From the NCBI GenBank assembly GCA_026419775.2, contig JAOPGA020001083.1, positions 1 to 58,974 on the forward strand: a DNA stretch of 58,974 bases, read 5' to 3'. Below, piece after piece: positions 5,176 through 52,121 of the stretch. Origin of the DNA: Acrasis kona. Lineage: Eukaryota; Heterolobosea; Eutetramitea; Acrasida; Acrasidae. The position numbers were made by a program, and so were the translations under genes. Below the pieces are notes generated by a model. The model saw nothing but the letters and a program-made list of their open reading frames with translations, was not told where the DNA came from and did no database searches. Position 1 is the stretch's first letter, and the number at the start of each line of letters is the position of its first letter.

Positions 5176-5258
5176 TGGTTGAGATGGGGATCGAACCCAG
5201 GACCGCCGGCTTATTAGACCGGTGCTCTCTGTCATGCAACCGACTGAGCTACTCAACC
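5176..5258 (-). tRNA. tRNA-Ile(AAT) with a 10-nt D-loop insertion
   Basis: Minus-strand cloverleaf, 83 nt. Acceptor GGTTGAG pairs with CTCAACC, with discriminator A. The D stem is GCTC/GAGC and the anticodon stem CCGGT/GCCGG (one G-T). The anticodon loop is CTAATAA, giving anticodon AAT. The T arm is CTGGG-TTCGATC-CCCAT with a C-T mismatch at its base. A run of six T follows the 3' end, as expected for a Pol III terminator. The D-loop is 18 nt: AGTCGGT is followed by the extra TGCATGACAG (about 5229-5238) before A21. Without it the loop is a normal 8 nt. There is no intron in the anticodon loop. The insertion lies just downstream of the A box, so the internal promoter stays intact. Confidence 0.88.
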
Positions 5259-5461
5259 TTGTAATTATTTTTAGATTATGTAAACAATATTATAAATAAT
5301 ATTATAACTTTGTATAGTTAGGCTTTCAAGTAATCTTGACTGTTATAATACACTGATTGATATTATGTTAAAACGCTCTGCAATATCGTGTCTGTTTTCT
5401 AACAGTAATCGCGTTTGCGTAGAAATCGGGGAGTCTGCGGTCAATCACCCCGCCACTCTCG

Positions 5462-5468
5462 TATAAAA
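5462..5468 (+). promoter_or_regulatory. Possible TATA element of the old yellow enzyme gene
   Basis: TATAAAA lies about 43 nt upstream of the ATG at 5511. This helps choose the inner ATG over an in-frame ATG at 5415, because the latter would place the TATA-like element inside the coding region. There is no transcript evidence. Confidence 0.3.
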
Positions 5469-5510
5469 TCGGAGCTGATTAATTGTCCACCCATCAAACA
5501 TTACGAAACA

Positions 5511-6605
5511 ATGGCAGAAGTAACAGCATTCTCACCAATACAAGTCGGAGACCTCACAGTTGCTAACAGAGTTTGGATGTCTCCAATGACAAGAAGTCGT
5601 GGAAAAATTCCCAATGACACATTTTCCAAGTATTACCAACAACGTTCGCTCCAACAGGACAACTCTGGGGCAGGTCTAATTGTTACCGAAGGAGTATTAA
5701 TTGAGGACATTGGTACAGAGTATGGTTCAGTTCCTGGAATCTACTCAGATGAGCAAATAAATGGGTGGAGGAAAGTTGTGGATGATGTTCACAAAAACAA
5801 CAGCTTGATATTTGCACAACTTTGGCACGTCGGTCGCATTTCACATTCTCTCTTGTCACACAACAACGCTCAACCAGTTGGTCCCTCTGCCATCAAAGCC
5901 CCTGGAGGAAAATTCCGTCAGTTAGGAGGGGCTGAGTACGAAGAACCAAGAGCACTAACAACATCAGAAGTCTCAGACTACGCTAAACTGTTTGGGGAAG
6001 CAGCAAGAAACAGCAAGAAGGCAGGGTTCGATGGTGTTGAAATTCATGGTGCAAACGGTTACTTGATAAATCAATTCATGAACCGTGCTAGCAACAATCG
6101 GGAAGACGAGTATGGCATTCAAAATTTTGAGAACCGTGCCCGTTTCACTCTAGAAGTATTGGAGCAAGTAATTGCCGGTTTTGGTAATGAATCACGTGTT
6201 GGTATTAGATTCAGTCCTATCACAACAGCATTAGGTTTGGTCGTAGAGGATGACGCTGTAGAGTTTTATTCATATCTACTCAAGCAGATTGCAGAAAGAT
6301 TCCCAAATCTCGCCTACGTAACAATCCTAGGAGATTTTACAGGCCAAAACGACATTGATGTAAAAACATTCAGAGAAGCTTACAAGGGCAAGACTTTGAC
6401 AGGAAGTGTAAATTTCGATTTTGAAAAAACTGAGGAGTACCTAAAGAAAGGTTACCTTGATGCAGTACACGTGGGAAGACCTTTTATTTCCAATCCAGAC
6501 TTGGTTAAGAGATGGAACAACAAGTACAAGTTGAGCGACGTAAACTGGTCCACTGTTTACTCATCTGGTGAACAAGGATACACAGATTATGAACGCCATG
6601 AATAA
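5511..6605 (+). CDS. Old yellow enzyme family NADH:flavin oxidoreductase
   Basis: Intronless, 364 residues from the ATG at 5511 (context AAACAATGGC). The frame is open upstream to 5415, but those residues look like untranslated leader. The sequence runs as an FMN-binding TIM barrel: MSPMTRSRG near the N-terminus, QLWHVGR, then the signature EIHGANGYLINQFMN, with the His and Asn that bind substrate carbonyls, and NNREDEYG. Late phosphate-binding elements VHVGRPFISNPDLV follow. Old yellow enzymes reduce activated C=C bonds of enones, oxophytodienoate-type oxylipins or electrophilic xenobiotics with NAD(P)H. The natural substrate cannot be told from sequence. Length is typical of the family. Confidence 0.92.
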   Translation: MAEVTAFSPIQVGDLTVANRVWMSPMTRSRGKIPNDTFSKYYQQRSLQQDNSGAGLIVTEGVLIEDIGTEYGSVPGIYSDEQINGWRKVVDDVHKNNSLIFAQLWHVGRISHSLLSHNNAQPVGPSAIKAPGGKFRQLGGAEYEEPRALTTSEVSDYAKLFGEAARNSKKAGFDGVEIHGANGYLINQFMNRASNNREDEYGIQNFENRARFTLEVLEQVIAGFGNESRVGIRFSPITTALGLVVEDDAVEFYSYLLKQIAERFPNLAYVTILGDFTGQNDIDVKTFREAYKGKTLTGSVNFDFEKTEEYLKKGYLDAVHVGRPFISNPDLVKRWNNKYKLSDVNWSTVYSSGEQGYTDYERHE

Positions 6606-6852
6606 ATATTTTTTGTAAATTAGAGGTTTATTCTTTTGCGTGTATGTTCTCATCACGCTTGAATGTGTAGGGGACAAGGTATGGTATAACATCCAACATG
6701 TTCTTGATTTCTCCCATTGTTTCTTGTCTAAAAGAACGATGACATGCACAAGAATATTGTAAAAGAATGAACAATGAAATGTCAATGAATTCCTCGTAAG
6801 AACCAGCTGCACACTCACAACTAAATTATGAAGATTTTCTCACAGGCCTTCA

Positions 6853-7986
6853 ATGAGCTCTAGCGAGCTTAAGGCTCGTTTAGAAGAATACAAGCAAAAA
6901 AAAAAGATTTTGAAGGAGCAGCAAAAGCCAGTCCAAAATAAAATACAACCACCACAGAAACGACCGCTATCGTCTAATGATGAAAAATCTGATTTAAATT
7001 CATCCACTCTTTCGACAAAACGCCAGAAACTAGATACATCATTTCAAAAAACGCCAAGTACCCCAAGAAGACTTACTACAAGTTATAAAAAAATCCTCGC
7101 CACTCCAGTACAAACTCCAAGGGGTGCCAGATCACAGCTCAACACAAGCATCAGCATTGATTCGGCTTTGGATAGGTCATTTACCTTAAATGATAGAAAG
7201 AAACCAAACGCTTCCTTCAAAAAAGTATCAAATCCCCCCACCATAAATTCGCAGTTCATAAAACCGAAAACACCACAACAACAGGAGTCCTCACGTACAT
7301 CACCAACTGGGAGAAAAACAAAAACACCCATAATGAAGAAGAGAGACGAACTGCAAATGTTAGGGATCATTTTACTTCAATTAACAAACATCAATTTGAA
7401 GGTTGAAAAATGCTTTGCTCAGCAACAACAACAAGCCATGCAAGAAATCTACAACGCTTGGAGCGTGCTTCAGGAACAATGTACAAAAGCCGAAGAAGCA
7501 GAGTCAGAACTTGAAAAAGAAACGATAAACTTTAATTTGAACCAATTATTCGCAAATCGTATCTCACCTTTGATAGATAACATGATGACACAATATAAAA
7601 CATTTCAGAATACATATACAACATTTGCGCATCATTTATCAAACACTGCACATCGTATTTCGATAGGACCTGACATTAGCATTAATGAGAATAATTTAGG
7701 AACCGTTCTATTAGACTGTGAAAATGTTCTTCAAAATATAAGCAGCAAGATGTTTAGTCACTTGGATGCGATCAACAATGTAAAAAAGTCCTTTGAGTTC
7801 ATGTATGGAACAATTTGTGAATGTACTAAAAAAACACATGAAATTGCTACGGTTAGGTTGAAGGAGATGAGCATGTTGGAGTGTATGAGTAAAAGTATTT
7901 CAGTAGGAGCAATACAATCCCATCGTGCATCAGAAGATAGTCGTTTTTCATGTGCTTCGCTTAGAGAGTCTCTTGACTTGTTGTGA
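6853..7986 (+). CDS. Basic coiled-coil protein, probable HAUS8/QWRF-type augmin subunit
   Basis: Intronless, 377 residues. The first 165 residues are basic, Ser/Thr/Pro-rich and disordered (repeated TPRR, TPRG and KTP-type sites), as expected for a microtubule-binding region with Cdk-type phosphosites. The C-terminal 200 residues are helical. Features such as EIYNAWSVLQEQC, a second helix with NFNLNQLF, then GPDISINENNLGTVLLDC and LKEMSMLECMSKS, match the spacing I recall from plant QWRF proteins (YNVWS...) and HAUS8. HAUS8/AUG8 anchors the augmin complex to microtubules for branching nucleation in the spindle. The QWRF tetrapeptide itself is not visible, so this is a pattern-level assignment. 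The alternative is an unrelated microtubule-associated coiled-coil protein. Confidence 0.5.
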   Translation: MSSSELKARLEEYKQKKKILKEQQKPVQNKIQPPQKRPLSSNDEKSDLNSSTLSTKRQKLDTSFQKTPSTPRRLTTSYKKILATPVQTPRGARSQLNTSISIDSALDRSFTLNDRKKPNASFKKVSNPPTINSQFIKPKTPQQQESSRTSPTGRKTKTPIMKKRDELQMLGIILLQLTNINLKVEKCFAQQQQQAMQEIYNAWSVLQEQCTKAEEAESELEKETINFNLNQLFANRISPLIDNMMTQYKTFQNTYTTFAHHLSNTAHRISIGPDISINENNLGTVLLDCENVLQNISSKMFSHLDAINNVKKSFEFMYGTICECTKKTHEIATVRLKEMSMLECMSKSISVGAIQSHRASEDSRFSCASLRESLDLL

Positions 7987-8067
7987 TGTTTGTACAGTTT
8001 AAGAATAAAATCGACTTGTGAAATCTTATGTTTGAACTTCCTTGTCAACCAACACAAAACAATTGAA

Positions 8068-9440: not shown

Positions 9441-9522
9441 GCCAGCATAGCTTAGTGGTTTGAAATTATAAAGCGTTCGCCTTGTAAGCGAAAGATCATG
9501 AGTTCAATCCTCATTGTTGGCT
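9441..9522 (+). tRNA. tRNA-Thr(TGT) with a 10-nt D-loop insertion
   Basis: Plus-strand cloverleaf, 82 nt. Acceptor GCCAGCA/TGTTGGC (one G-T) has discriminator T. The D stem is GCTT/AAGC, the anticodon stem TTCGC/GCGAA with loop CTTGTAA (anticodon TGT), and the T arm ATGAG-TTCAATC-CTCAT. The D-loop reads AGTGGT, then extra TTGAAATTAT (9460-9469), then A21. Deleting the ten bases leaves an ordinary 7-nt D-loop. The downstream T-run is weak (three T). Confidence 0.88.
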
Positions 9523-18350: not shown

Positions 18351-18434
18351 TGGACATGTAGGGGATTGAACCCTAGACCTTTTGCATGCGAAGCAAACAC
18401 TCTATAAAAAGAAGTACCACTGAGTTACATGCCC
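18351..18434 (-). tRNA. tRNA-Ala(CGC) with a 12-nt D-loop insertion
   Basis: Minus-strand cloverleaf, 84 nt. Acceptor GGGCATG/CATGTCC contains the G3-U70 wobble pair that defines alanine tRNAs. The D stem is ACTC/GAGT, the anticodon stem TTTGC/GCAAA with loop TTCGCAT (anticodon CGC), and the T arm TAGGG-TTCAATC-CCCTA. Discriminator A is followed by four T. The D-loop reads AGTGGT, then the extra ACTTCTTTTTAT (18404-18415), then A21. Confidence 0.9.
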
Positions 18435-20154: not shown

Positions 20155-23100
20155 ATGTCCAGGAAGAGGAAGACACAAAATGACATTGCTTCTAGTAATA
20201 AGAAAGCGAAGTTGAATGATTCTGTTTGCGATATGCGATCTGATTCCATACAGTTCCAATCAAAATGCAAACTGTTCCAAATGATTTTCAAAAACTCATG
20301 GAAATCACTCTATTCATTCCTAGCAAGTTATAGCATTAAAGTTGAGGACCATGATTTGTTGGAGTTTACACATTCTTGCTTCATTTGCGTCGCCCCTGAT
20401 TCGCCGCCATTATCTACAAATTTCTCGCAAGATCAAACTTGTGCGCAGTCGCATCTCGTAGACCGAGTTATCGGATCAATTATGCTGAGGGGAGATGAAA
20501 AGTACAAGCATGTATTAGCGTTAGGCTACAGCACGGTAGGTATACTGAATGGCATTAATCTAACCTTGTTAGCCTAAATTTGGTAACACTGGTACTTCTA
20601 ATCTTCATGGCATACAAGTGTGTTTCCCAAACACGATAGTGACAACCCTCAAAAATCACAATTGGAGCAAACTTTTATCAAAGATTGGTAAGTTTACATT
20701 CGTTCTACTCCTAACAAATCAACAGGGGATGATCTAATGACCTACATTTTAACATATTGCATTGTTCTTTCAAGACTTCCTAATGATTGTCTATTGCAGT
20801 TAACTGGGTATGAAATATTCTTCTTAACAACAACTTATACCGTCAGTAACATTATAGATGAATATGTAAAAAAGTCGAATCAAGATAAAGAGTTCATCGA
20901 ACTAAAGCCAAGCAAACTAAACAGAATCAACATTAAAAAACCCAAATTAAAAAAACAAGACCCATCAACACCACCCGAAGATCTCAATTGTGAGGAACTT
21001 CAAGAAAGTCAAGTAAACACTCAAGAACAGTTCAAGAAGAAGAAATGTAGAAACAAGAAAAAGAATAAAAAAACCAAAAATGAAAACCATTCAAAACTTT
21101 CATTAACGCAACAAAAACCAAAGTAAGTTAATCTCACATCATCCCAAAACTAATGATAGAAAATCACCATCACAAACGAATCCCACCAACAACTCACTTG
21201 CACTCAATTCCATAATCATTCCCAGGATCGCAATGTTCTTTGCAGCTCCGACTCGCCTAGTGAATGGATTTCCTTACAAGAACATTTTGAATAGAATTCA
21301 ATGCAGTAACAAGGGAGCCGACATACTATTCACAAACATTTTCAAAAAGTAAAATGATTCAAAAATTGATTTAACCTTTTCCAGTGAAAACATCTTCAAC
21401 GACACCAAACAACAATTAATCGAAACACCAGCAAACATCAAGGGTTACTCCATGATTAGGAAATTACTCAAACAATTAAAACAAAATCAAATCAAAATGA
21501 AGGGTGATTTTATTTACTTGTTAAATAGACATTGTCCCATTCAACATTACAATAAACCAGAGCAACAAGAAGAACGATACGATAAAGAAGGAAACGAAAT
21601 GTCACAAGATGATGTATTCATTTCAAATTCGATCGAAAATTATAACGATTGGGAAATGATTGATGACCAAGTGATCAAATCACAAAGTGAAGACATTGAA
21701 GATGACGATCGCTCTACATCATTACGTTCGCCATCCAATCACAAATTTGAATACTTGATCAACCAACACGCCCACCCCAATCGCGTGTCCAATTTCATCA
21801 AATCCATCCTCACCAAAATCATCCCGTTCGAAATTTGGGGATCTCGTCACAATCAAAATCTATTCCTAACCTCCATCGATAAATTCATTCGATTGGGTCG
21901 ATTCGAAAAATTCAATCTGAAAGATGCCGTACAAGGAATGTACGTTACCGATTGCGAATGGACCAACCAACAATCAAAAAACATTTCCTCCGTACATGAT
22001 TTGGCCAATCCCAACACTTACAAGCATGAACAAGGCCTTCAGTTCTTAAAAAGAAGCAAAATGTTACATTTATTTGTTTATTTTTGTTTCAAATCGTTGG
22101 TGATCTCCTTGGTGAGGTGTTATTTTTATTGTACAGAAATGAATCAATCCAGAACGAATTGTCATTATTATCGCACATGTATTTGGCAACAAATCGATAA
22201 ACAATCTTGGTCATCGTTAGTTTGTAATGACGATCATGATGCGTTGTATCAACGAGTCGATCAAATCGCAAACAAATCGAATTTGTTATTACCCATCGGT
22301 AACGTTCGTTTGTTACCAAAAATCAAACAAGTAAGACCGATCGTTAATTTAGGTAAGAAGCAATGGATGGATGGATACTTGAAATCAACGAATAGCATTT
22401 TGAAAAACATCTTGCACGTTTTGAAATTCGAAAACAAAAGGAGCGATCCAGCGCCTCCTTTGTTGGGCAGTAGCGTGTTTAACGCACTTGATATTTATAA
22501 GCGTTACTTGCCGTTCGTAAAGCTATGGAGGTGGCAACAATCGCATAATGCTTTTCAATCCAACGCGTCCAAGGTTTATTTCGTGAGCGTGGACGTCAAA
22601 TCTGCATTCGATAGCGTACCTCATGATAAATTACTGAGCGTCATGTTGAATAAGGTACTCAAGGAGGACGAATATCAAATCATCAAATACAATGCGGTGA
22701 GACCCTTCTTGGGAAGGCCCAGCATTAAATACGAAAGAGCAGTTTGTACTCCTGACGAATTTCCGTTGTTTCCAGAATATGCAAAAAATGTTTTGAGCAA
22801 ACGATACTCGAGGAGTATATTGACGGATAAAGTTTTTTATAAATTTATGGATAGAGAGGAGATTGTAAACATGTTGAGGTGTCATGTACGAAAGAATTAT
22901 GTAGTGCGTGGAAGAGGCGTAAAGAGCGTTTATTATAGACAAAAGAAGGGCATTCCACAGGGAAGCGTTTTATCGCCGTTGATGTGTAGTTACTTTTATG
23001 CTGATTTGGAGTATTCTCACTTGAGCGATTTGCCGGGTACTTGTTCTTTGGTGAATGCTGTCACAAGGTATGGAGGTGGTAACTTGGAAGCGAGCCACTT

Positions 23101-24414
23101 GTCTTCTTTATCGCAAGAACAAATTGTTAATCATGATGATGCTCCTATTTTTACTCCTCCTAATCAAATTCTTCATAATAATCTTGTCTGGAATGGTCCT
23201 GGTTCGCCACTAGTGGTTGTGTCCACGTCTAGTGACTCTAGTGGTAGCGAACAGCACGGTAATAATATTTCTCGTATTGATAGTCCGTGGTGTTACTTCT
23301 CCGCTAGTCAGGTGAGGTCGCCAGGTCAGTTGGTGTCTCCTTCTCCGAAAACCAATCATTGCATTCTTGGCGAAACGCAGCGGTTGTTAACCGACATTGC
23401 GTCGGACGAAAATGTGGAGAAGTTGAATGCATCCGTAATGTCTAGTTCTTCTTCCTCTTCCTCTTCTGGTATCATGTCCCAACCATTACCGATTGGTGTG
23501 TTGTTACGTCTGATTGATGATTTCCTATATGTTACATCAAGTTACGAGTCCGCGAAGACTTTTCTCCAAAGGTATATGGATGGATTTAGTGATTATGGTG
23601 TATCCATCAATCCTCTTAAAACAAAATTAGGGTTTGAATGTAGTGTGAGTGGGAAAGATGGGGTCGTTGATTTCAAAGCCGAAAAGTTTATTAGGTGGTG
23701 CGGTTATCTTTTTGATACCATGTCTCTTGAGGTCATGCTTGACTACTCAAGGCATTGGTCATGTCGTACGTTATTCTGCTTCTTGTATTTTTTTTTACAA
23801 TAAAGATTTGAAAGAAAAACTTTCCAAGGAGGGAGAACGTCCTGGTGTTAACCTTGCTCATAAACTCAAACAGTAAGTTGTTTGTTCTTATTTGAATTCA
23901 ATCCATTAGTACCATTAGTGTGAAATGTACTCCTCTCATCATTGATGCAACCCTTAACAGTTTATTCACATCTTGCCTTAACGTTTACCAAATCTTTGTG
24001 TTCTGTGCAATGAAATTCCATTGCTTCGTAAGAAAATCACTCGAGGTCAATCCACCCAAAGATCCCACAGCACCCATTAATCACTCATCCAAGTTCCTTG
24101 TGGATGTGATATCCGACGTGATTGGATACATGTGGGTCACCATAGAATCGAGAGGAAAATTGATGGAGTCGATGCAGAGCAAGCATGAGCTGACGGAACA
24201 CAAGGTGCAGTATATGGGCTTACATGCCTTTCATACAACTTTAAACAGAAAGCAGAGCTTTTATGCCACAAGAGTGCCAACCCTGCTGTCCCAACTTTCA
24301 TGTACAATCTCTAGCGGCATTTTTAAAGAAATGTTAAGGAGCAACAAAGATGTAATGTCACGTGTTATCAATCCACTCAATTCTCAGGACCTTTTTGATA
24401 AAATTAGGTTTTAA
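20155..24414 (+). CDS. TERT: Telomerase reverse transcriptase catalytic subunit (7 exons)
   Basis: Exons: 20155-20535, 20573-20687, 20726-21122, 21160-21348, 21385-23765, 23806-23872, and 23910 or 23919 to 24414; about 1341-1344 residues. TEN domain: a GT-motif-like CFPNTIVTTLKNHNWSKLL then IGDDLMTYIL and LQLTGYEIF. A lysine-rich linker follows, then the RNA-binding domain with FPYKNILNRI and LLNRHCP (CP/QFP type), and the T motif around FKSLVISLVRCYFYCTE. RT motifs: VRLLPKIKQVRPIVNLG (1-2), A FVSVDVKSAFDSVP, B' KKGIPQGSVLSPLM, C LLRLIDDF, D INPLKTK, E WCGYLFDTMSLEVMLDYS. All three catalytic aspartates are present. Motifs B' and C are separated by about 160 residues of Ser-rich insert, against about 25 usually. 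The thumb (KCTPLIIDATLNS onward) is complete. The start ATG is preceded by an alternative TTG only. Confidence 0.95.
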
Positions 24415-26553: not shown

Positions 26554-26634
26554 CTCAGCACCGGGGAATATCGAATTATCGAACCCCGGTCACAAGAGTG
26601 ACAGTCTTGTATTCTACCACTATACTAGTGCTGA
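26554..26634 (-). tRNA. tRNA-Asp(GTC) with a 10-nt T-loop insertion
   Basis: Minus-strand cloverleaf, 81 nt. Acceptor TCAGCAC/GTGCTGA has discriminator G. The D arm has a normal-length loop with one stem mismatch. The anticodon stem is CAAGA/TCTTG with loop CTGTCAC (anticodon GTC). The T stem CGGGG/CCCCG is perfect but closes a 17-nt loop, TTCGATAATTCGATATT (26567-26583), in place of the universal 7-nt loop. The loop contains a near-tandem TTCGATA duplication. A T-rich terminator follows within a few bases. The insertion splits the B box consensus, so the promoter may use only part of it. Confidence 0.85.
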
Positions 26635-28308: not shown

Positions 28309-28547
28309 TGTACTTTCTTTTATTTTCTCTAATTCGGTATTGAATTCTGTTTCGTCAAGTTTAATTTTTCATTTCAGTTGATTGCAACATTGTAAATGTT
28401 GTGAAACATGAACAACCCATTTATGTGAATCGACGTCGAAGGAAACCCAGATTTGACAATAAAAGATAAAAAAATCTCAAAGGAAACCAGATTTGACTAT
28501 AAATTTCGAAGGAGAAGCTTACATGCTGTATAATACGTATTTAAAAA

Positions 28548-31500
28548 ATGGAAGAAGACGACTGTGAGAGCTTCGGGCAGTCCATACCACTGACCCAAAT
28601 ACTGAAGAATATCCTTAAGGATTATCCACCTGGCACTCAGATCTTGAGAGAGCTCCTTCAAAATGCAGATGGTATGTCAATTGTAACATGGTTATTTAAC
28701 AACGGAATAGATGCAGGAGCAACAGAATTCAGAGTAACACTCGATGAGAACCCTACCCTTGTTGGCCACCTTGAAGGTCCATCGCTAATCTGCTACAACA
28801 ATTCCAAATTCGAGGAAAAGGACTTCAAGTCAATTAGTAGCTTGGGTAATTCAAGGAAAGAAAGCGAGAAGGACAAAACTGGTCGTTTTGGTATTGGATT
28901 CAACTCAGTCTATCATCTCACAGACTACCCCAACTTTGTCACCGGAAAGTACGCTGTGCTATTCGACCCACACTATGACTTGGTCACGACTCTTGTCAAA
29001 TCATTCGACAGAGGTGGTGATCCAGGTACAAGAACTGATCTATTAAAATCACACGGGAGGGTAACCCCAATTCGAACTTTCTTCTCGTCACTTGACAATC
29101 ATTTCAATTTTCAATTGGATGCAAATCAAGAATTCGAGGGCACCATGTTCCGATTTCCGCTACGAACAAACGAAAGGGCCCTCAAGAGCAAAATATCAAC
29201 ATCGGCATTCACTTCCGAGGACATCAAGGAGATGTTCATATCTTTTGCTAAAGAGGCCGTAACTGACGCAATTTTCCTGAAGAACATCACTACCATCAGC
29301 ATTCATTATCGACCCCTCCAGGGTAACATACAAGATTGGTATCACATGGAAATCGTACAAAACGAGCACGACGCTAAAGAAAAACAAAAGTTGAAACTTT
29401 TGCTAAACCAATTCGAGCAAGTCGTTCAACACGGACCAACAGATGACTACAACGCACTATACCAATTTAAAGTCAATCAAAATTTTCACGCCGTAGATGG
29501 ATTACAAGAACAAAAAGAAATCGCAGAGACTTGGATGTGTAGTGGATACCTTGGTGCCACTAAATCAATGGCCATGGCAAAAGACGCCCTCGACAACAAA
29601 TCCTCTACAAAGAGAATACCTTATGGATGCGTGGCTGCGAGATTAAAGACAACTGCAGAACACAATGACGGTCAGTCATCCAAGTCGCTACTCAAAGACG
29701 CAAGGGCTTATTGTTTCCTGCCAATGCCAGATTCTACAATGCTACCAGTTCACATCAATTCATTCTTTGAACTTTCATCCAATAGAAGAGAACTATGGAA
29801 GGAGTCTTGCGATCTCATTGGCGAGGCCAAACAGAAATCATCCTGGAACGAATCGTTAAAATCAGATGTGTTGGCACCTGCTTATGTTAGACTCCTAAAC
29901 CATTTAAAGCAAATTGGTAATTTGTTAACAAAGAGCGAACTTTTCTCCTTGTTTCCAACCTATGACTGTCAAAGTGATTGGTCTACCATTACATCTCATG
30001 TCTATCAAGAGATTTATGACAGTGATTTGAAATTGTTTGATACTTTTTCAAATGCACTAGTATGTGCATCGGATGTGCTGTCTTTTAGTTGGATGAAAAT
30101 GTTGCTTCTGAAAACGCACGCGCAGTTAATCAAGTGGCTACTATGATGATGAATGTTTGTGAATTGCCTAATCATGTAATAACATCTTTTAAGAGGAGTG
30201 ATAGAAATATTCGAAGGATAGAACCAGAAATGTTTTTAACTGCGTTAAAGAATAAATTTGAAATGTGTCATCAAGATCTAATCGATGACCAACCTATCTT
30301 GCACTTTTGTTATAATGTGTTGAACTCGTCCAACATTGTTGGAGTGCCTCTTCTTCGCGTCCTTCCTCATGATTTGTTTTGTTTTGGTAAAAACACTGTT
30401 TATCTATGCAATCAGGAACAAATCTTGCTGTTGGAGCCTTTCATCTCTCAGCTATCCCCCAGTTTGATTTCGAGAATAACACCAATTTTGAAAGATGTGT
30501 CATCAAACTTCTCAACTTCAAAACTTGTTGTTATGAACCACAACCACTTTTGTATTTGTTTGTTAAAGATATTAAAGAATGACACAAATGAAAAAGAAAA
30601 GACTGCATCTCCGTTTTCTGACAACAAATTAATAAAGAGTACTAAATGATTATATGGCAGATTGTTCCGAGGAAGATGAGAAGTTGTTTAATAAGCTACC
30701 TCTCGTACCAACTGTTGTTGTTGATAGTGCTCGACAACTTAAACACATGATGAGCCCTCTCGAAGCTGCTGTTGTTCGCGATTTACAAAACGTATTTGAA
30801 GATAATCAGTTCATTGAAATACGTATTGCACTTGAGAGGTGTGGTTTAAGAATAGTTGAGCATTCAATGAACGATGTCCTCACCCACATACCTCCTTTGA
30901 AATTATCTGTTATTGTTGAACTAATCTCAAAGTATCTGAAACATAGACCGGATTCATCTTTGTACTTGATGTTTTTACAACTGTTCAGAATGATGTTCGA
31001 TTCTACTGTATCTCAGGGCACAATCCAAACAATTAGTCAATTACCAATATTTAAAACGTTCGGGAAATCAAGCAGAATGTACACTACTCTTGATAAGCAA
31101 CATGAGCTGCCTCCCAAAACAATCAAAAGCAGTATTGCATTAGGAAATTTGCATCTTGACTACAAGGATAAGGAGGCGACAATTTTTGATTGACGTATTC
31201 AAGGTTAAGAGAATGACGGAAGTTAACTACTATACCAAGGTGTTATTTCCTGAAATAAACAATGGTCGCATCGAAGTAGATCAACAGGTGATTAATCTAC
31301 TAGACGCGGCACTTTCGAAAGTGTTCAAATTTAATGATATCAATCCAGAATTCTCGCAGTCTCTTGGAGAAATTAAATTCATCTACGTATCTGGTCTTGA
31401 AAGACACTTGAGTCCCTGTGAGTTGATCGATCCTAGAAAATCAGATGTTGTAAAGCTGCTTGAGGGCACTGACTTTTATCATGATCTTGTTCCAGAAAAT

Positions 31501-34500
31501 TATGAGAAGTTCCTTCCAATGCTTGAAAAGTGCTCAATGGTCCAAACAGTCTCACCTTCAATGCTATCAAAATACATTTACAGCACTGATTACAACTTCT
31601 TAGTAAAGTTGGTCGACTATCTAAAATCTCAGAACGAACATGAACTACAGCAGTATAAACACGTCTTTGATGAGAATGAAAACGTTGAATGGTTGCCTTG
31701 CATGAACCAAACATTAGGCTCCATCAAAGATACCCTTCCAAAATCTAGCTACAATCTTGTTCACACCGTACCAGGGGTACACATTTGTAACATTGATGTT
31801 AGCAAAGCACTACAAAAGATCTTCAATTGGAATCAAAGCGTGCCCATCGATATGGTGTTGCAACACATGGAGAACATGCAGGTTGAATATGCAGATGGAA
31901 GGATCACACAAGAATCATTCATGACCATTCTATATGATCAGATCTATTCGTATTTAGATTCAGTTTCACAAGATGAGCAACAGGCTGAAAGGATCAAAGA
32001 TATTGGTTATCTTGTCATTGAAGGTAGAAGAGTGCCATACAGTGCCGTCGCTGAATCGTACCCAAAATCCTGGAATGCCGATTTTTCGCCTTACATCTAT
32101 AAACTACCAAAGTCACTTCTCAAATACAAGAAACTATTAAATGTGACTGGCGTAAAGCAGCAGTTTGACTGTGATGATTTATTCAAAATACTGGAAGGAA
32201 TTCCTTCTCACCACGATCCCAGCTCCAAGATACAAACTGCAATACAACTCATGAACTTGATCACCAGCGAGAGATTCACGAATGATAAAATCACAAGTGG
32301 ACAAGTAGAACTGCCTACTCAATCAGGTAAATTCCTGCCTGCCAACAGAACATTTTATCAAAAAAGTAATTCATGCAATGAATATGAATCAAAGCGATTG
32401 AATAGTTCCATTTCCTTTGAAATAGCGCAGCATTTTAACGTCCAGTCTCTCGAAGACCATGTAGCAGTAGAAAATCAACTCTGGGTCGAAGACTTTGGTC
32501 AATCTGAGGATTTGTGCGATCGTATCAATAATATTATCAAAGAATACAGCGACAAAGAGTCCCTGTTCAGAGAATTACTACAAAATGCAGATGACGCTGG
32601 TGCAGATCAGTTCTCTATGATATTGGATCTAAATCACTACCCCACTAGTAGCATCATTAAAGGCCACTCTAATGACATACAAGGCCCAAGCATCATTGCA
32701 TATAACAACAAAACGTTCAAAGACTCTGACTGGAAATCCATTCAAAATATTAACGGTAAATTCAAAATTCATGAAAAATCGAAAATTGGAAGGTTTGGTC
32801 TTGGTTTCAACACTGTGTATCGCTACACTGAAGTACCATGCATTCTATCTGGTGATAAACTTGCTTTCTTAGATCCTCAACAAAAGTACATTCCTTGTGG
32901 AAAAATGCCAGGACTTTGCTACAATGTCATCAAGACATCGAGCACGTTTGAGGATACATACAAGCCATTCGCCAGATCTGAAATAAAATACGACACGAGA
33001 AAGAAATTGGATGGTACGCTCATAAGAATACCACTTCGAACAAGAAAACAAGCAGAAACCAGTAGATTGCTAAATGAAGCTGTAACGACGGACATGGCTA
33101 TTAAACTAATCGATCAATTCAAACAGGACGCTCCCAACTTGCTTATCTTTTTGAACAACATCCGCCACATCAAATTATATATTGACGACGAGAATGGTTC
33201 AAGAGAGATTGTAAGTATTTCGAAAACAAGATCAGCAGAACTTGATTATATGAGTGATGATGTTTACCAGGTAGAAAATTACCTGCATGCTCAAACTTCT
33301 AATAAAGTTGCCGGTACCAAACCGATTGCAAGCTCACGCGTTGGCAAGGTAGATATGATTATCAAAGACGGGAAGGAGAACAAGCGCACATGGCTGGTAT
33401 CTGGATATACAGCAGGTACCAATAGTATGCAATTTGCTATAGACCATTGCAAAAATAAAATAACAGAGAAGCATCGCATGATTCCACATGCATCAGTTGC
33501 TATCGAGTTAACCAGTACGACCGCCAACAGGAAACATAACATGTATTGTTTCCTGCCAATTATTCAGACCAAATATGAGTTGCCGTTCCATACAAATGGG
33601 TACTTTGAACTCTATTCTAGCCGTATGGATTTGATTCAGAATCAAAACAGTGGTCATTGTGATATTTCAGAATGGAACAATCTTCTTATATCAGAGTGCG
33701 TAGCTGTTAGCGTTGTTAATCTCATTCAGCATCAATTGGAACATCTTACATCAAAGATTCCATATCTCAAAAGTACAAAAGACATTGATCAGAAGTACTC
33801 CTCCTTGTTAAGCTTGTTCCCACATGTCGCACCTGACAGTAACTTTTATTGCTTAATTAGACCCTTCTACCAACTCATTTCTCAAAAACCATTTTTTTAT
33901 TTAATAAATTCATCGAAATTTGTTTGTTTGAAAGACACTATTGTGTTGAGCAAAGAGAACCAAAGACAGAATATTGACTTGGTCATTAAAAGACTTCCTC
34001 TTGTTATTTTGAACGAAACAATCATTCAGAAATTCAAGGAGAGCAAAGTAGAGTTAAACATGTTTAACAAGAACAATATCGCTGCTTGGTTCAAACTACA
34101 AAAGAATGTTGTTGACATCAGTGCTGAATTTGTTGAACAATTGTGGAAAGTTTTATTACAACCTTCGGATGAACAAATGCCGTCATTTAAGAAACTACCT
34201 GTGGTGAACCGTGCTGGAGGAATATGTTTCTTATCAAGGCGGAATAAACTTTACGATCAGGGAGATAATGTCTATCTATTTACGGTGATTCCTAGTTTAA
34301 AGAGTCAATTTATCATGATACCAACAAATTTAAACAATCTTGAGCCTTTTACCAAAAAATATAGTTATCAAAACTTCATAAATGATATGAATGGAGTTGA
34401 GATACCTCCATACTCGAAGGAACATGATCTTTATTATGATGCTCTTTACAAACTCGTTATTAGAGCAGTAGATGATAAGACATCAATATTACAACAAAAG

Positions 34501-37221
34501 TATCCAATAGTACCTACAAATAACGGAATGAAACGCCTTGATCAAATAAAAAATGTGTACCACTCAGAAGATTCCAGACTCACTAATGTATTGAGCGAGA
34601 TAGGCGTTGATGTTCTAAAAATGGATAACAACCCTCTCTGTTCATTGTACGCCAACATCAAGCGCCTTGTCACAGTTATAAATGACCGAAAGACTTTGTG
34701 TGATGCTCTGTATCTATCGAATTTTGATAAAATGAAGAACGAGAGCTGTGATACAATTGTTAGTTGTTATTACGACTTACGTGCATCAAATGATCGCACT
34801 CTAGACATTCTTAATTTCCCGTTGTTTCCACTCATTAATGGCGAAAGAACTACACTCAAAGAATTGAATGCTGACATTTATTTGAATAACCCTTTAGGGG
34901 ATGCTTTACTAGAATCAACAAAATGTCCTCCCATAAAAATTTTGAAAAATTCTCATCCATATAGTTACATCTACCATGATGTAAAACAACTTAAGAAATT
35001 TGATTATCTTCACTTTGCTGAACATCATGTTTTCAAAAAATGGTTCGAAAAACAAGATGAAGAAACATGTCATAAACACTTGGAAGTTTTGAGGCAACAC
35101 ACTTTAAACTTCGTAATCAAACGAAATAACCAATTATTTGAAAAAATCAAATGCTTAAAGTTTGTTGTTGGTGAAGATAATTCCAAGTATAGTATTTCAG
35201 AATTGTATGACCCCACAATTGCTTTGTTCCAATCATTTGGCAAAAACCTTCAACTTGTCTTTCCATCAACACAATTTGCTGAACCAAAATGGATTAGTTT
35301 ATTGAAGCCTTTAGGAATGATTACAACCATTAATAAGTCATTCGTCGTAAGGTGTTTGATGTTATTGATGCAAGAGAAGGACGAGAAATTAGCGATTGAA
35401 AAATTCAGTGAACTTAAGCCATATATAGAATTATTCTCCGAAGATGTTGATGTGATAAATAATGCGGTAGTTCCGATCGTTAAATTGGATCAAACAAAGT
35501 ACCCTAATTGCATGAAAGTAGATACTTTATTCAAAAATATCAAGAACGTTGTTGACTATAGCTCCGTTGACTTGGTTTTTACGACGAAGCATGTGTTTAA
35601 TCACTCTTACTTGGGCTACATCAAAAAATTACACCCAAATTATAAAATCGAATCTATAGATGTTTACAACCATTTGAAAACAATATGTCAGCTGCCAATA
35701 ACCGAAAACACAAGCAGGGTTGTAAAGAACATTTATAACCATCTACACAAATACACTGTTGACATGCCTAAAGATCTACAAGAGTACCCAGTAGTATTGT
35801 TAAACAACGAGTTTATACGCCCTAATAGAGTGTTCTCAAGCATTGAGAAGGATTATAAACCATTCATATACAAACTACATCCAGAGTATCTAAAATCACT
35901 CAAGTTCTTCCAATGCGTAGGAGTAGAGGATCAACCCAGTAGGGAGATATGTCGAAGTCTTTTGAATGAACTATTTTACATGAATAAAGATCAAACACGA
36001 TGTAATCCGACACAAGTGGATCTATCATTGTATCTAATTCGCACACTAGTTACAAAATACAATGATGATCTTTTTGACAGCTATCTATTGGATCACCGCA
36101 TTGCGTTGCAACAAATCAATCACATAACAGTCAACAATGCACCTTATCTACTAAAGAAAATACATGATGATACGTTCAACTTTTTACATCCAGAGTTGAT
36201 CGACCTTGCATCCAAACTCAACTTGAAGTATTTATCTCAACAAGTCACGTCCGAATACTCATCAGGAGATAAAATTGAACAAGCAACAAAATACGATGTG
36301 CAGTCCATTCAGTCCAAGATTCGTAGTCCAGAATTTAGGAGCAGCGTGCTTCGCCTCTTTATGAACCAAATGAGCCACTGCGAGCAAATACCCATCAACA
36401 AATACAACAACTTGCAAGAGCAGTTAAAAAAGTTAGAAAGTATTGAGGTGTCTGAAGTGGATCAAATACAGTGCATATACAGACATGATGGTAAAGACAT
36501 TTCGAGAAGAGATGTAGAACCTGTATCAAGTTGTGTTTACGAACAATCCATGTTGCTACTTCCCCAAAGATACTCTAATTTGATAGACATTTATTTAATT
36601 ATTGCGAGAGAACTCAACAAGAGCTTCATGTTGCAAGATCAATCGTTGTTGCTCATCCTTTTGAAAACCGATATAGAAAATATGGTGTCTGTGTTAGATG
36701 AATACGGAGTGCCCAATACAGAGGACAATACTCTGTCATTGATCAGAAAATTAGGCCACCAGGTCGACGCTGAGGATGACCATAAATTTGTAGTTCCAGT
36801 CAGTGCAGACAATGTAACCGTAGATGAGTTAGTCGCGTACATCAAGGATAATATCAAATATTATGGCAGAGTTCTCTGCATCAAAAATTATTGTTCGATA
36901 GACACTGGAAGTGGAGCTGTTGAAATGAAATTATCTGACTTACTAAAATACCAAGAAGCTGTTACTAATGTGACATTGAATGCGCCATCTAGATCACCTA
37001 TTGATGCATTAAAAGATTCTCTTAGATGTAGCATCTCGCGCAGCGTCTTTGTAGACCCTGTGGTAGCATGCGATGGTGTCACATATGAAAGAGAATACAT
37101 TTTAAGTTGGTTCAGTCGCCATATGACATCGCCTGTTACGAACTTGAGGCTAGAAAATACCAGGGTTATTCCAAACTTACTTATCAAAACAATTGTATCA
37201 GATTTTTCTTTCGAAAATTAA
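28548..37221 (+). CDS. Giant sacsin-like protein with two sacsin/HATPase repeats and a C-terminal U-box
   Basis: Exon 1 is 28548-28671; a 39-nt intron (28672-28710) that is a multiple of three and stop-free follows; exon 2 is 28711-30059; a 29-nt GT-AG intron (30060-30088) follows; the rest runs to 37221. After splicing, repeat 1 starts SFGQSIPLTQILKNILKDYP with the Bergerat-fold box LRELLQNADDAGATEF and GRFGIGFNSVYHLTD. Repeat 2 (about 32490-33000) has FGQSEDLCDRINNII, ELLQNADDAGAD and GRFGLGFNTVYR. The last 75 residues are a U-box (RCSISRSVFVDPVVACDG, YEREYILSWF, SPVTN). Sacsin is an Hsp90-like co-chaperone; the U-box adds predicted E3 ubiquitin-ligase activity. Two +1 frame breaks remain, near 30640-30650 and 31181-31193; the first could be a 22-nt intron (30639-30660). 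About 2,870 residues in total if all joined. Confidence 0.85.
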
Positions 37222-46955: not shown

Positions 46956-47005
46956 TAAATAAAAATTTTTATTGAATCGGTAATGATTTGGTGATGTTGT
47001 TGGTC

Positions 47006-48697: not shown

Positions 48698-48856
48698 ACT
48701 AAACTTCTATTCATTTTGATGTACCTGATTTGTATTTTCATGTATATAGAAACAATTGGATAATGATTCCTGATAATACAAACAAAATTTTTCTAGCAGA
48801 ATAGAAGAATTTCTTTTAAGGAACAATGAACAAGATGAAGGAACTTGCCGAAGATT

Positions 48857-48912
48857 ACAGACCAGACACAAAAAGCAAAAAATAATAAAACTAAACTTTT
48901 ATTCATTCAAAT
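48857..48912 (+). repeat. Partial duplicate of the 3' end of the BRCT gene
   Basis: The stretch around 48857-48912 resembles the end of the BRCT gene and its trailer at about 48670-48715. Both contain ACCAGACA, an A-rich lysine run, TAA, then CTAAACTT and TATTCATT. A tiny frame (MNKMKELAEDYRPDTKSKK) ends here like the KKKAKK tail of the gene. It is probably a local duplication carrying the stop codon and polyadenylation region. Confidence 0.5.
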
Positions 48913-48924
48913 ACTGTACAATGT

Positions 48925-49926: not shown

Positions 49927-50109
49927 TGTTCCGTTGTGTTTGAGAATAATTGAAGGAGGTTGACGAATACTTTGTAAAAAAGCTCAAGTTAAATACCGAA
50001 AAATAGATTTAACATTGGCGGTAAAAAGTTCTTCCTATCAATATCAGATCAGATCAGACATCTGCTCGATCAACCACAAATTGAGATCATTACGACACGA
50101 GTGCCAATC

Positions 50110-50675
50110 ATGAAAGTCCAAGAACTATCAACAATTTTTGTTCTTGTTATGCTAACCACTCTTAGATTATCTGCACCCCCAAAACCAACCTCACCAATCT
50201 CTAATGGAGAACACAAATTAATACTTCCAATGAATGTTTTTAAAGGTCAATTGTATGTGGACAAGATTACTCAAAACTACCGTTTGGATTTAAATTCAAC
50301 ACATCGAATTATCGATTCCATCAACATCGCCAAGTTCAAGTTGAGGAAATTATACACTCAGATTGAAGGAGAGACAATGCATAGAGGCGACTCTTGAATC
50401 TAAAGACTTTTTTAACAGCCCAAAGATTTTTGAATCTACGAAGTTTGTTAATCAAACAGTTGTGGACGGTCATCAAGTTAATTCAAGAAGATTCAAACGT
50501 GGAAGCCGACTATAACATTTATACAAATAAACTAATCCACTTCAAGACAAAGACGAGTGCCTCAGATGTTTCCGTAAAAAAGTTAAGTGCAGACATCCCA
50601 GAGGCGAAGATATTCATCTGCAGAAGTTTTAAATGCGCCCCACTCTTCAAAATACTAAATAAAATGATAGTTTAG
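50110..50675 (+). CDS. Small secreted protein with two apparent +1 frame breaks
   Basis: From ATG 50110 a signal peptide (MKVQELSTIFVLVMLTTLRL) leads into FKGQLYVDKITQNYRLDLNS, a strand-rich pattern loosely like ependymin-related or LVN-type secreted proteins. The frame closes at 50397. The next frame carries coding-like CIEATLESKDFFNSPKIFES (about 50378-50440) and closes near 50515. The third frame carries DYNIYTNKLIHFKTKTSASD to a stop at 50675. Each step is +1. I found no GT-AG introns that would fix both breaks. The ependymin-like label is a weak impression. It may be a pseudogene, an assembly problem or a recoded gene. Confidence 0.4.
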
Positions 50676-50766
50676 CAACATTGTTATTTATGATTTAGTA
50701 ATGCAGTTACCCGAGTAAATGAACAACGTATGGCTTAGTGGTATTTTTAGATTAATTTAACAACAA

Positions 50767-51708
50767 ATGAGTGTGACAGCAAAGATCAATCAGCCCACTT
50801 CATTCATCAAACTGGTGTCTATACTGAAGGACCTAGTGGAAAATGTCAATATGATTTTTACGCATGAACACATTAGAATCAACACAACAGATTGTTCGTA
50901 TAAAACCAACTGGATTATTCTGACCTATATAGCCATACAGATAGTATTATTTGACATGATTATTTATGAAGGAGGAGGAATCACCTACGAAGAGGATAGC
51001 GCACCTGTGAACGAAATGGTTGTCGGGATCAACATAAAGGTACTTGTATAACAAAGTTTTCAATAACTGTGAAGTTGTTTTCTAATTGTCTTAAAAATGT
51101 GAAAAGCCATGACACTATTGCTATAACTGTTAGTGATGACACCTTCTCTGTAGTGAGTCAAACACTCTATTTTTAAACGTAACCAAAAGGTCATCAACAA
51201 AAAAGACCAAATCTCCAGGACCACTCACTACGTTATGAATCAGTTTATGGTAGAGCAAGAAAGATTTGAAATTCCCAACAGAGATTACAATGTAGAAATG
51301 CTGATTCCTTCCAAACTTTTAAACGAAGTCATCTCCGAAATAAGTTCAGTTTCAGAAAGGATCTCCATCACACCACTATCGCACAGAAACACTTTATCTT
51401 TTTCAGGATCGACTCATCTAGTCAAGTCAAAAATAGAACTAGAGGCAAGTGACAAGCTTGACATTGTGTTTAGAAGCGATGAAACATTCACTCAACAGTT
51501 TAGCGCAAAGTTTCTAACCATCATAAGCAAGTGTACTAAAGTCAGCGACTTGGTACTGTTCAAGTTGAGCACAGATGCACCATTGTTCCTATTATTGTGA
51601 GTTTGTTGTTAGTACTTTATAATAATAAAATTGTTTAGTAGATTAGAAGGTATGGGAGAGTTTCATTTTCATGTAGCGCCATATGTTGAAGAACTTGATG
51701 AACAATAA
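50767..51708 (+). CDS. Divergent PCNA-like sliding clamp
   Basis: Introns begin at 51042 (gtactt), at 51152 (gtgagt) and at 51599 (gtgagt). The product reads FIKLVSILKDLVENVNMIFT, HIRINTTDCS, then IKLFSNCLKNVKSHDTIAIT, an interdomain connector VMNQFMVEQERFEIP, LIPSKLLNEVISEISSVSER, and ends FHFHVAPYVEELDEQ. These align along the whole length of PCNA (IDCL, the LGIP-type motif and the C-terminal YYLAPKIE strand). Identity is low, so it is either a diverged PCNA or a paralogue, possibly related to the 9-1-1 clamp. An extra segment at 50898-50932 is bounded by GT and AG (35 nt) and is absent from PCNA, yet removing it leaves the frame one base off. Confidence 0.75.
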
Positions 51709-52023
51709 AATTTGGTTTAATTATTGAATGGACATGTCTTTGAATAGATGTTTGCTCCATCCATTCCCTCCCTCTCCGCCCTTTTTGTTTTTATATCTTT
51801 TTTGAGGGAACAATAGAGTTTGACTACCCTCATTACGCACAACATTTTATTGTACAAGGTAGATACAATCACACCGTAGGTAATGATCTAAATATAATCA
51901 GTATAACTCGTTGTTGAATACTCATCGCGCTGATGGTAGTGATCTAAATAACCGCTTTAATTGGTGTTTTCAATTAAATTATTGTTAAACACTAAGCTAA
52001 TTCTTAACCTGATCAAAAAATTA
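51709..52023. other. Intergenic region between clamp gene and tRNA
   Basis: About 315 nt, AT-rich, no open frame. Its right end (52015-52020) is the T-run that terminates the minus-strand tRNA. Confidence 0.35.
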
Positions 52024-52121
52024 CTTCGATACCGGGAATCGAACCCGGGCCTGAAGAGTAAGAGTCTTCCATCCTTTGTAGATTTGATGAATTCGTTGTA
52101 AAACCACTGGACGATATCGAA
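52024..52121 (-). tRNA. tRNA with Glu-type body but CTT (Lys) anticodon, 27-nt D-loop insertion
   Basis: Minus-strand cloverleaf, 98 nt. Acceptor TTCGATA/TATCGAA has discriminator G. The D stem is GTCC/GGAT, the anticodon stem GAAGA/TCTTC with loop CTCTTAC (anticodon CTT), and the T arm CCGGG-TTCGATT-CCCGG. A six-T terminator follows. The U1-A72 start, TCGTCCAGTGG, AGGCCCGGG and the anticodon-loop 3' end AC are features of eukaryotic tRNA-Glu, whose loop is CTCTCAC; lysine tRNAs end the loop with AA. The D-loop reads AGTGGT, then 27 extra bases (52076-52102), then A21. It may decode Lys codon AAG, be an inactive tRNA-Glu with a C36U change, or need editing. Confidence 0.8.

What the first reader, a model, noticed from the sequence alone, without database searches (positions are those of the whole stretch)
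5176..52121. Four tRNA genes share an insertion at exactly the same D-loop position
tRNA-Ile (5229-5238), tRNA-Thr (9460-9469), tRNA-Ala (18404-18415) and the Glu-body tRNA (52076-52102) each carry 10, 10, 12 and 27 extra bases after GGT and before A21, that is between positions 20 and 21. The inserts share no sequence, but removing them leaves perfect standard tRNAs, while the anticodon loops have no intron. No tRNA in the window lacks an insertion. Established: ectopic tRNA introns exist in archaea, in the red alga Cyanidioschyzon and in nucleomorphs. Inference: this protist splices tRNAs at non-canonical sites genome-wide, implying an endonuclease of altered specificity. Each insert sits just after the A box, so transcription is preserved. 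Standard tRNA scanners may score these genes as pseudogenes or miss them.
Basis: partly seen in the sequence, partly recalled or inferred. Interest (0 to 1): 0.93.

Follow-up and report, generated by a model that had tools for sequence, protein, structure and literature searches.

The report
Hidden introns throughout amoeba tRNA genes
In an amoeba that is very probably Acrasis kona, most of the transfer-RNA genes we could read are interrupted by tiny inserts in unusual places, which look like introns that must be cut out before the cell can make protein; such interruptions were known mainly from archaea and a few algae.

Summary
The genome is very probably Acrasis kona (one protein 100% identical). 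In a partial census, 177 of 258 tRNA genes (19 of 26 isoacceptors) carry inserts of 9-28 nt at six sites in the D-arm, anticodon loop or T-loop; Tyr genes read carry two, one carries three. With one exception (Tyr 37/38), the families follow one rule: intron bases -6 to -3 pair with exon bases -6 to -3, leaving 3-nt bulges, the core of the bulge-helix-bulge motif (mean 3.52 of 4 pairs, shuffled 1.79; 3.57 against 1.77 for the 63 inserts with only one possible placement). Differently interrupted Asp and Lys-TTT genes give the same mature tRNA. SEN2, SEN34, SEN54 and RtcB genes are present. I conclude that these are relaxed-BHB tRNA introns, of the Cyanidioschyzon kind, in an unrelated protist. 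No RNA data were available; excision is inferred.

The parts
5176..5258 (-). tRNA-Ile(AAT) gene, body intact
   Evidence: Rfam tRNA 53 bits; all 15 listed Ile genes have an insert at 20/21
5229..5238 (-). 10-nt intron of tRNA-Ile at 20/21; only one placement possible
5231..5234 (-). intron strand of the 4-bp BHB helix (TGAC), pairs with exon GTCG at 5241-5244
   Evidence: 4 of 4 pairs; base-pair probabilities 0.65-0.79
9441..9522 (+). tRNA-Thr(TGT) gene; no TTTT within 20 nt downstream, unlike the other 10 intron-bearing Thr genes read
   Evidence: Rfam tRNA 61.5 bits
9460..9469 (+). 10-nt intron of tRNA-Thr at 20/21
   Evidence: an insert-free copy with an identical body exists; 3 of 4 register pairs; helix not formed in the predicted fold
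18351..18434 (-). tRNA-Ala(CGC) gene
   Evidence: Rfam tRNA 57.4 bits
18404..18415 (-). 12-nt intron of tRNA-Ala at 20/21
   Evidence: 3 of 3 Ala genes found carry inserts; 3 of 4 register pairs; helix not formed in the predicted fold
   Evidence: mature sequence identical to insert-free and D-intron Asp genes
26568..26577 (-). 10-nt T-loop intron of tRNA-Asp, placed at 59/60 by fit
   Evidence: another Asp gene, at C772, also has one
26570..26573 (-). intron strand (CGAT) of the BHB helix, pairs with T-loop exon TTCG at 26580-26583 (3 of 4)
   Evidence: base-pair probabilities 0.87-0.99 for three pairs
52025..52121 (-). Glu-body tRNA gene with anticodon CTT instead of CTC
   Evidence: not called as a tRNA by ARAGORN or Rfam
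52076..52101 (-). 26-nt intron of the Glu-body tRNA, best placed at 20a/21
   Evidence: 9 of 9 Glu-body genes found carry one of 25-28 nt
52078..52081 (-). intron strand (CTAC) of the BHB helix, pairs with exon GTGG at 52104-52107
   Evidence: 4 of 4 pairs; base-pair probabilities 0.87-0.94

Best explanation
The inserts are spliceosome-independent tRNA introns of the bulge-helix-bulge class. In the precursor, four exon bases ending two bases before the 5' splice site pair with four intron bases ending two bases before the 3' splice site. This leaves two 3-nt bulges (two exon bases and one intron base at the 5' site; two intron bases, the first nearly always A, and one exon base at the 3' site) that the SEN2/SEN34 tRNA-splicing endonuclease cuts; RtcB then joins the exons. 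At 20/21 and 59/60 the helix sits on or next to the D- or T-stem. At 15/16 the intron carries a decoy 3' strand of the D-stem (in Lys and Trp GAGY), which the real strand would replace after splicing. Shown from sequence: the inserts, their sites, the pairing rule, intact and mostly identical mature bodies, T-run terminators, and SEN2/SEN34/SEN54/RtcB genes. Inferred: transcription, cleavage, ligation, and that the endonuclease works here without the mature-domain ruler that fixes 37/38 in yeast.
For: Pairing rule: 26 isoacceptor-site families, 148 unique inserts; 89 have 4 of 4 and 49 have 3 of 4 pairs; family mean 3.52 against 1.79 (sd 0.107) shuffled (none of 2000) and 2.11 (sd 0.17) with partners swapped between families (none of 5000). 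Not an effect of my placement: the 63 inserts (18 families) with only one possible placement average 3.57 against 1.77 (sd 0.117) shuffled. The helix is confined to four positions: paired fractions 0.84, 0.98, 0.99, 0.69, flanked by 0.52 and 0.20, which are at the null (23 families, before Ser was added). Intron -2 is A in 142 of 148. Tyr genes have a 37/38 insert of 9-10 nt as well as a D-loop insert (11 of 11 read; one also has a T-loop insert). Gly-GCC: T-loop insert in 12 of 12 read. Same mature tRNA from different layouts: Asp (5 D-intron, 2 T-intron, 2 free), Lys-TTT (4 at 15/16, 1 at 20/21), and interrupted against insert-free copies of Thr (8 of 11 interrupted agree), Asn (2 of 3), Arg-TCT (3 of 6), Arg-TCG (2 of 2) and Ser-TGA (2 of 3). 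Body positions not used for selection are 98.4% identical over 46 pairs of interrupted genes, while inserts (30-88%) and 40-nt upstream flanks (28-49%) differ. TTTT within 20 nt downstream in 72 of 73 intron-bearing and 28 of 28 insert-free genes checked, background 13%. SEN2, SEN34, SEN54, RtcB.
Against: No RNA evidence. The Tyr 37/38 family fits the register poorly (1-2 of 4 pairs in 6 unique inserts); Ile, Asn, Thr and Ala mostly have 3 of 4. Folding of the five window precursors shows the helix in Ile, Asp and Glu but not in Thr or Ala (spliced Ala and Asp do not fold to a standard cloverleaf either). If every insert that can slide is put in its worst equivalent placement, the mean falls to 1.93 (null 1.36). 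The 15/16 and 17/18 classes lack an exon helix outside the motif. Insert-free copies were seen for 10 of the 19 interrupted isoacceptors.
Confidence: 0.93

Rival explanations
1. The interrupted copies are pseudogenes, and insert-free copies elsewhere supply the tRNAs; a review treats scattered D/T-arm insertions in eukaryotic tRNA genes this way (PMC4090602, passage seen).
For: Insert-free copies were seen for 10 of the 19 interrupted isoacceptors. A few copies look decayed: Lys-CTT at C742, Thr copies with T-stem changes, and the window Thr without a T-run. 30 of the 130 pattern hits were not listed and could hold insert-free copies.
Against: For 9 isoacceptors no insert-free copy was seen. 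Unselected body positions are 98.4% identical between interrupted copies next to diverged inserts and flanks. Paired acceptor-stem changes are kept in intron-bearing Arg-TCT and Ser-TGA. Terminators are present in 72 of 73. Pseudogene inserts would not obey one pairing rule at several sites.
Confidence: 0.02
2. The inserts are retained, and A. kona uses tRNAs with enlarged D- and T-loops.
For: Some tRNAs have modest D-loop length variation (recalled); no RNA data exclude retention.
Against: T-loop inserts break the loop that contacts G18-G19 (textbook knowledge). Insert-bearing and insert-free genes give identical bodies. Inserts at the canonical 37/38 site occur in the same Tyr genes. The intron-exon pairing would have no evident purpose.
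Confidence: 0.03
3. The inserts are footprints of a small mobile element or of a double-strand-break repair process that targets tRNA arms, with no splicing.
For: Lengths cluster at 10-14 nt (127 of 148). Identical free 5-mers are shared by Ile, Asn and Lys-TTT inserts more than a column shuffle gives (14 against 6.6, p 0.02).
Against: Footprints would not complement the upstream exon at a fixed register; inserts differ within isoacceptors. This could explain how introns arise, but not why the bodies stay intact.
Confidence: 0.02

Closest known systems
[quoted passage not shown] C. merolae permuted-gene junctions include 20/21, 37/38 and 59/60, three of the sites found here (PMC3978253 passages and section 8; PMC9602550 introduction).
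   Different: A. kona is a discobid, unrelated to red algae. Here tRNA families are multi-copy, with inserts diverging between copies and insert-free paralogues coexisting in some families. Most introns are 10-14 nt, sites 15/16, 17/18 and 21/22 are also used, and permuted genes were not looked for.
Non-canonical tRNA introns of crenarchaea (Thermoproteales, e.g. Pyrobaculum)
   Same: 4-bp helix with 3-nt bulges, many sites, several introns per gene (PMC8450103 passages; PMC3978253).
   Different: Eukaryotic host; the PF01974 search found two loci, which match Sen2 and Sen34 best, and Sen54 is present. Relaxed motif, with no room for an intron helix in most introns.
Guillardia theta nucleomorph tRNA introns
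   Same: Short (3-24 nt) introns at non-canonical positions in D- and T-arms, with excision shown by RT-PCR (PMC4090602 passage).
   [quoted passage not shown] here 138 of 148 have at least 3 of 4 pairs in one register. This is a free-living cell's own genome, not a relict nucleus.
Canonical eukaryotic 37/38 tRNA introns
   Same: All 16 Tyr genes found have an insert there, as does one Gly-GCC gene.
   Different: The other inserts lie outside the anticodon loop, and the Tyr genes read carry a second one in the D-loop.

Membership tests
BHB-type (SEN-processed) tRNA intron | 4-bp helix between exon and intron with 3-nt bulges, cut after the second bulge base | tested here: met
   Helix and bulges: 138 of 148 unique inserts have at least 3 of 4 pairs in that register; 56 of the 63 with one possible placement. 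The Tyr 37/38 family is an exception. The cut itself was not tested
BHB-type (SEN-processed) tRNA intron | Strict hBHBh' motif with helices on both sides | tested here: not met
   Most introns are 10-14 nt and leave no room for an intron helix; 15/16 and 17/18 sites show no outer exon helix by inspection. Relaxed forms only
BHB-type (SEN-processed) tRNA intron | Intron absent from mature RNA | not testable with these tools
   no RNA data; inferred from identical mature bodies
BHB-type (SEN-processed) tRNA intron | Catalytic endonuclease subunits and a ligase in the genome | tested here: met
   PF01974 at two loci, aligned to solved Sen34 and Sen2 chains; one full-length RtcB match and a second, split one
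C. merolae-like disrupted tRNA system | Introns in D-, anticodon and T-arms, several per gene | tested here: met
   Tyr genes with two, one (C549) with three; Gly-GCC at C492 with two
C. merolae-like disrupted tRNA system | Circularly permuted tRNA genes | not tested
   no search run for them; no Phe or Val gene was found, and these could be permuted, differently interrupted or simply missed by my patterns
C. merolae-like disrupted tRNA system | No recognisable Sen15 subunit | tested here: inconclusive
   PF09631 best hit 15 bits, E 0.8, below cut-off 22; the search is weak; Sen54 is present
tRNA pseudogenes | Body decays at a neutral rate | tested here: not met
   positions not used for selection 98.4% identical over 46 pairs in 7 classes, flanks 55% with gaps allowed or 36% without gaps
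Self-splicing (group I/II) introns | Structured intron of some hundreds of bases | tested here: not met
   9-28 nt; the size criterion is recalled knowledge

The most novel reading that the evidence does not exclude
tRNA introns are being gained, moved or lost now in A. kona. One mature tRNA is encoded by sister genes with an intron in the D-loop, an intron in the T-loop, or none (Asp), or at two different D-arm sites (Lys-TTT), and the same 10-nt intron occurs in Ile, Asn and Lys genes. Such families would let intron birth at BHB-compatible sites be watched directly, perhaps by reverse splicing or gene conversion between tRNA genes, and would show a eukaryotic endonuclease that has shed the anticodon-arm ruler.
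Probability: 0.35. Interest if true: 0.9.

Novelty: new variant of a known kind. Interest (0 to 1): 0.83.

Why it matters
Passages read here say that non-canonical tRNA introns are supposed to be rare in eukaryotes (PMC4090602) and that eukaryotic tRNA genes are limited to one intron (PMC8450103); the exceptions those and PMC3978253 name are C. merolae, nucleomorphs and little else among algae. A free-living discobid with most readable tRNA genes interrupted would show that this condition arose, or persisted, far outside the algae. It supplies about 150 natural variants of one cleavage motif in a laboratory amoeba, and warns that scanners miss such genes (in this window ARAGORN found 0 of 5, Rfam 3 of 5). 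Gene families with and without introns, at several sites, make the origin of tRNA introns directly testable.

Tried and rejected
ARAGORN on the window found nothing. A relaxed Rfam scan still missed the Glu-body and Asp genes as tRNAs. A pattern search for tRNA-Phe gave 3 hits against 12 and 10 control hits, i.e. none credible. The Tyr pattern gave 41 hits against 31 and 28 control hits, of which I picked 16 by their shared tRNA body. The genome tRNA search scored only 63 of 2352 candidates. Sen15 profile search was inconclusive. Soma et al. 2013 (PMC3728597) is not held and is cited only through reviews. Papers on ectopic tRNA introns or on Naegleria, Heterolobosea or Acrasis tRNA introns were sought (open PMC subset only); no listed title or abstract describes this, and I did not open most of the listed papers. 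In the main text of the A. kona genome paper the only two tRNA mentions concern tRNA synthetases (passages; supplements not seen).

Errors and limits of mine: the Thr pattern failed (redone), and the Lys-TTT and Ser-AGA patterns matched nothing; the Ser-AGA pattern also failed, so Ser-AGA was not compared there. One Gly-GCC insert was typed one base short (corrected). Two Tyr genes were double-counted (corrected). Body identities come from near-exact patterns and are biased upwards, so I replaced them. One search was a first version that took three flanking bases as body (mean 94.9%). The pattern cannot match an insert-free Leu-TAG gene (the one known came by chance), so the Leu-TAG ratio is biased. 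Searches were rejected for malformed search terms; the questions were covered.

Dropped before counts: 2 of 100 listed hits were unclassifiable chance hits; one Lys-CTT copy (C742) lacking part of the D-arm was left out of the pairing test but kept in the census; 30 of the 130 hits were not listed by the tool and were seen only where other calls found them.

Full report
What is in the window. Five tRNA genes were found and all are interrupted. Ile-AAT (5176-5258, minus), Thr-TGT (9441-9522, plus) and Ala-CGC (18351-18434, minus) carry 10, 10 and 12 extra bases between T20 and A21; Rfam's tRNA model finds them at 53-61.5 bits while ARAGORN finds none. A Glu-body tRNA (52025-52121, minus) carries 26 bases, best placed between 20a and 21. 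A fifth gene, Asp-GTC (26554-26634, minus), was overlooked: its body is intact but the T-loop holds 10 extra bases, placed at 59/60 by fit. The relaxed Rfam scan also misses the last two as tRNAs.

Whose genome. The window is contig 541 of a 37.35-Mb assembly in 1021 contigs. A COX15 ORF in the window has its best named relatives in Naegleria and Willaertia (58-60%). The SEN2 ORF of this genome is identical over its full length to a protein of Acrasis kona, a heterolobosean. I therefore take it as A. kona; this rests on one protein plus the group-level similarity.

How widespread. A D-stem/T-arm pattern hits 130 places against 3 for the reversed control. Of the 100 listed hits, 98 are tRNAs of ten anticodon classes, and 86 of these carry inserts. 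With further searches and stretches read, a hand census gives 177 interrupted and 81 uninterrupted genes in 26 isoacceptors, 19 of which have interrupted copies (tally). No uninterrupted copy was seen for Ile, Cys, Lys-CTT, Lys-TTT, Ala-CGC, Glu, Gly-GCC, Tyr or Ser-CGA. No interrupted copy was seen for the two Met tRNAs, His, Gln-CTG, Pro-CGG, Pro-TGG and Gly-CCC; the T-arm was read in only some of these. The census is partial: 30 pattern hits were not listed, the T-arms of eight Gly-GCC genes were not read (those are left out of the counts), Leu-TAG is biased by its pattern, and no Phe or Val gene was found.

Sites. Inserts lie at 15/16 (Lys-CTT, some Lys-TTT, Trp, Leu-TAG), 17/18 (Arg-TCT), 20/21 or 20a/21 (Ile, Asn, Cys, Thr, Ala, some Lys-TTT, Asp, Gly-TCC, one Gly-GCC, Tyr, Glu, Arg-TCG, Ser-TGA, Ser-CGA), 21/22 (Ser-AGA), 37/38 (Tyr, one Gly-GCC) and 59/60 (Gly-GCC in 12 of 12 read, two Asp, one Tyr). 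Every Tyr gene read in full (11 of 11) has a D-loop and a 37/38 insert, and the one at C549 also has a T-loop insert; five more Tyr genes show the 37/38 insert.

One rule for nearly all sites. If the last two bases of the 5' exon and the last two bases of the insert are set aside, the preceding four exon bases pair with the preceding four insert bases. Over 26 families and 148 unique inserts the mean is 3.52 of 4 pairs; shuffled inserts give 1.79 (sd 0.107, none of 2000 reach it), and real insert ends swapped between families give 2.11 (sd 0.17, none of 5000). Many inserts can slide by a base or more without changing the mature tRNA, and I had chosen some boundaries by fit. The 63 inserts in 18 families that have only one placement average 3.57 against 1.77 (sd 0.117) shuffled; forcing every slidable insert into its worst placement gives 1.93 against 1.36. 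Position by position the paired fraction is 0.38, 0.52, then 0.84, 0.98, 0.99, 0.69, then 0.20, 0.31, with the outer positions at the null level. Base -2 of the insert is A in 142 of 148. The exon strands differ (GCTC, GCCG, TCAG, GTCG, AGCG, AGTG, GTTG, GTGG, GGTC, TTCG, and at 37/38 CTGT and TTGC) and the insert strands follow (for example GAGY, CGGT, CTGA, YGAA), which is covariation between families. This is the central part of the bulge-helix-bulge motif. At 15/16 the insert supplies a decoy of the D-stem's 3' strand. The fit is not uniform: the Tyr 37/38 inserts make only 1-2 of 4 pairs, and most Ile, Asn and Thr inserts 3 of 4. Folding of the window precursors shows the helix in Ile, Asp and Glu, not in Thr and Ala.

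Genes under selection. Body positions that played no part in finding the genes are 98.4% identical over 46 pairs of interrupted genes in 7 classes, while inserts are 30-88% identical and the 40 bases upstream 28-49%. A run of four T follows within 20 bases in 72 of 73 interrupted genes checked and 28 of 28 others, against 13% of random stretches; the exception is the Thr gene of this window. Removal of the inserts yields the same mature sequence from different layouts: Asp with a D-loop intron (5 genes read), a T-loop intron (2) or none (2 of 3 read, the third differing by one base); Lys-TTT with an intron at 15/16 (4 read) or 20/21 (1 read). Interrupted and insert-free copies also agree for Thr (8 of 11 interrupted), Asn (2 of 3), Arg-TCT (3 of 6), Arg-TCG (2 of 2) and Ser-TGA (2 of 3); the three differing Arg-TCT and the one Ser-TGA gene carry paired acceptor-stem changes. 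Leu-TAG differs by C16 to T16 (all). These facts argue against pseudogenes and against retention.

Machinery. Two tRNA-endonuclease loci align with solved Sen34 (E 1.4e-13) and Sen2 (E 7.5e-33) chains, with the Tyr, His and Lys that I recall as catalytic matched in the printed alignments (in one Sen2 chain, 7zrz, the His is replaced in the solved protein itself). A Sen54 N-terminal domain (35 bits), one full-length RtcB match and a second, split one are present. Sen15 was not recognised, as reported for C. merolae, but that search is weak. Mechanism: SEN2/SEN34 cuts both bulges and RtcB joins the exons; that the enzyme acts without the mature-domain ruler is the hypothesis put forward for C. 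merolae (PMC3978253 section 8) and is inferred here.

Relation to what is known. C. merolae has introns in over 62% of nuclear tRNA genes, no fewer than 12 genes with several, three with three (PMC9602550 introduction); its permuted-gene junctions use 20/21, 37/38, 50/51 and 59/60 (PMC3978253 passages). Guillardia nucleomorph tRNAs have 3-24-nt introns whose excision was shown (PMC4090602 passage). A. kona would work like these. It differs in lineage, in having multi-copy families with diverging inserts and insert-free sisters, in extra D-arm sites, and in the short relaxed motif. The main text of the A. kona genome paper mentions tRNA only in 'tRNA synthetases' (passages). My literature searches (open PMC subset) listed no report of it by title or abstract.

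Evolution. The Lys-TTT and Asp families show introns at different sites in genes for the same tRNA. Identical 5-base free parts recur between Ile, Asn and Lys-TTT introns (14 cross-family pairs against 6.6 expected, p 0.02), which suggests conversion or transfer between genes, weakly.

Verdict. A real, genome-wide set of relaxed-BHB tRNA introns, with excision inferred from sequence and not yet shown.

Noticed in passing
window 52025-52121 (-), anticodon: The Glu-body tRNA has anticodon CTT (Lys codon AAG), while the 8 other Glu-body genes read have CTC: a one-base anticodon change that could mischarge or mark a dying copy.
   Followed up: partly
window 9441-9522 (+): The Thr gene is the only one of 73 intron-bearing genes checked without TTTT within 20 nt downstream.
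   Followed up: partly
window 21353-23803 (+): ORF with a telomerase RNA-binding domain (PF12009) and a reverse-transcriptase match (PF00078): the likely telomerase (TERT) gene.
   Followed up: partly
window 28545-37221 (+): Very long sacsin-like reading frames (PF25794 in the first piece), possibly one giant gene with small introns.
   Followed up: no
G000 contig 35, 17454-18165: Two Tyr genes in opposite orientation about 0.65 kb apart, each with a D-loop and a 37/38 insert.
   Followed up: no
G000 contig 742, 25254 (-); L073, L074, L075: Possible decaying copies: a Lys-CTT gene lacking part of the D-arm, and three Thr genes with single T-arm changes.
   Followed up: no
Leu-TAG genes (L106, L138, L139 against L061): Intron-bearing Leu genes read T at position 16 where the intron-free copy reads C.
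   Followed up: no
G000 contigs 277 and 862, Asp genes (L088, L090): Same intron and nearly the same flanks: a recent duplication or uncollapsed alleles, so gene counts may be slightly inflated.
   Followed up: no
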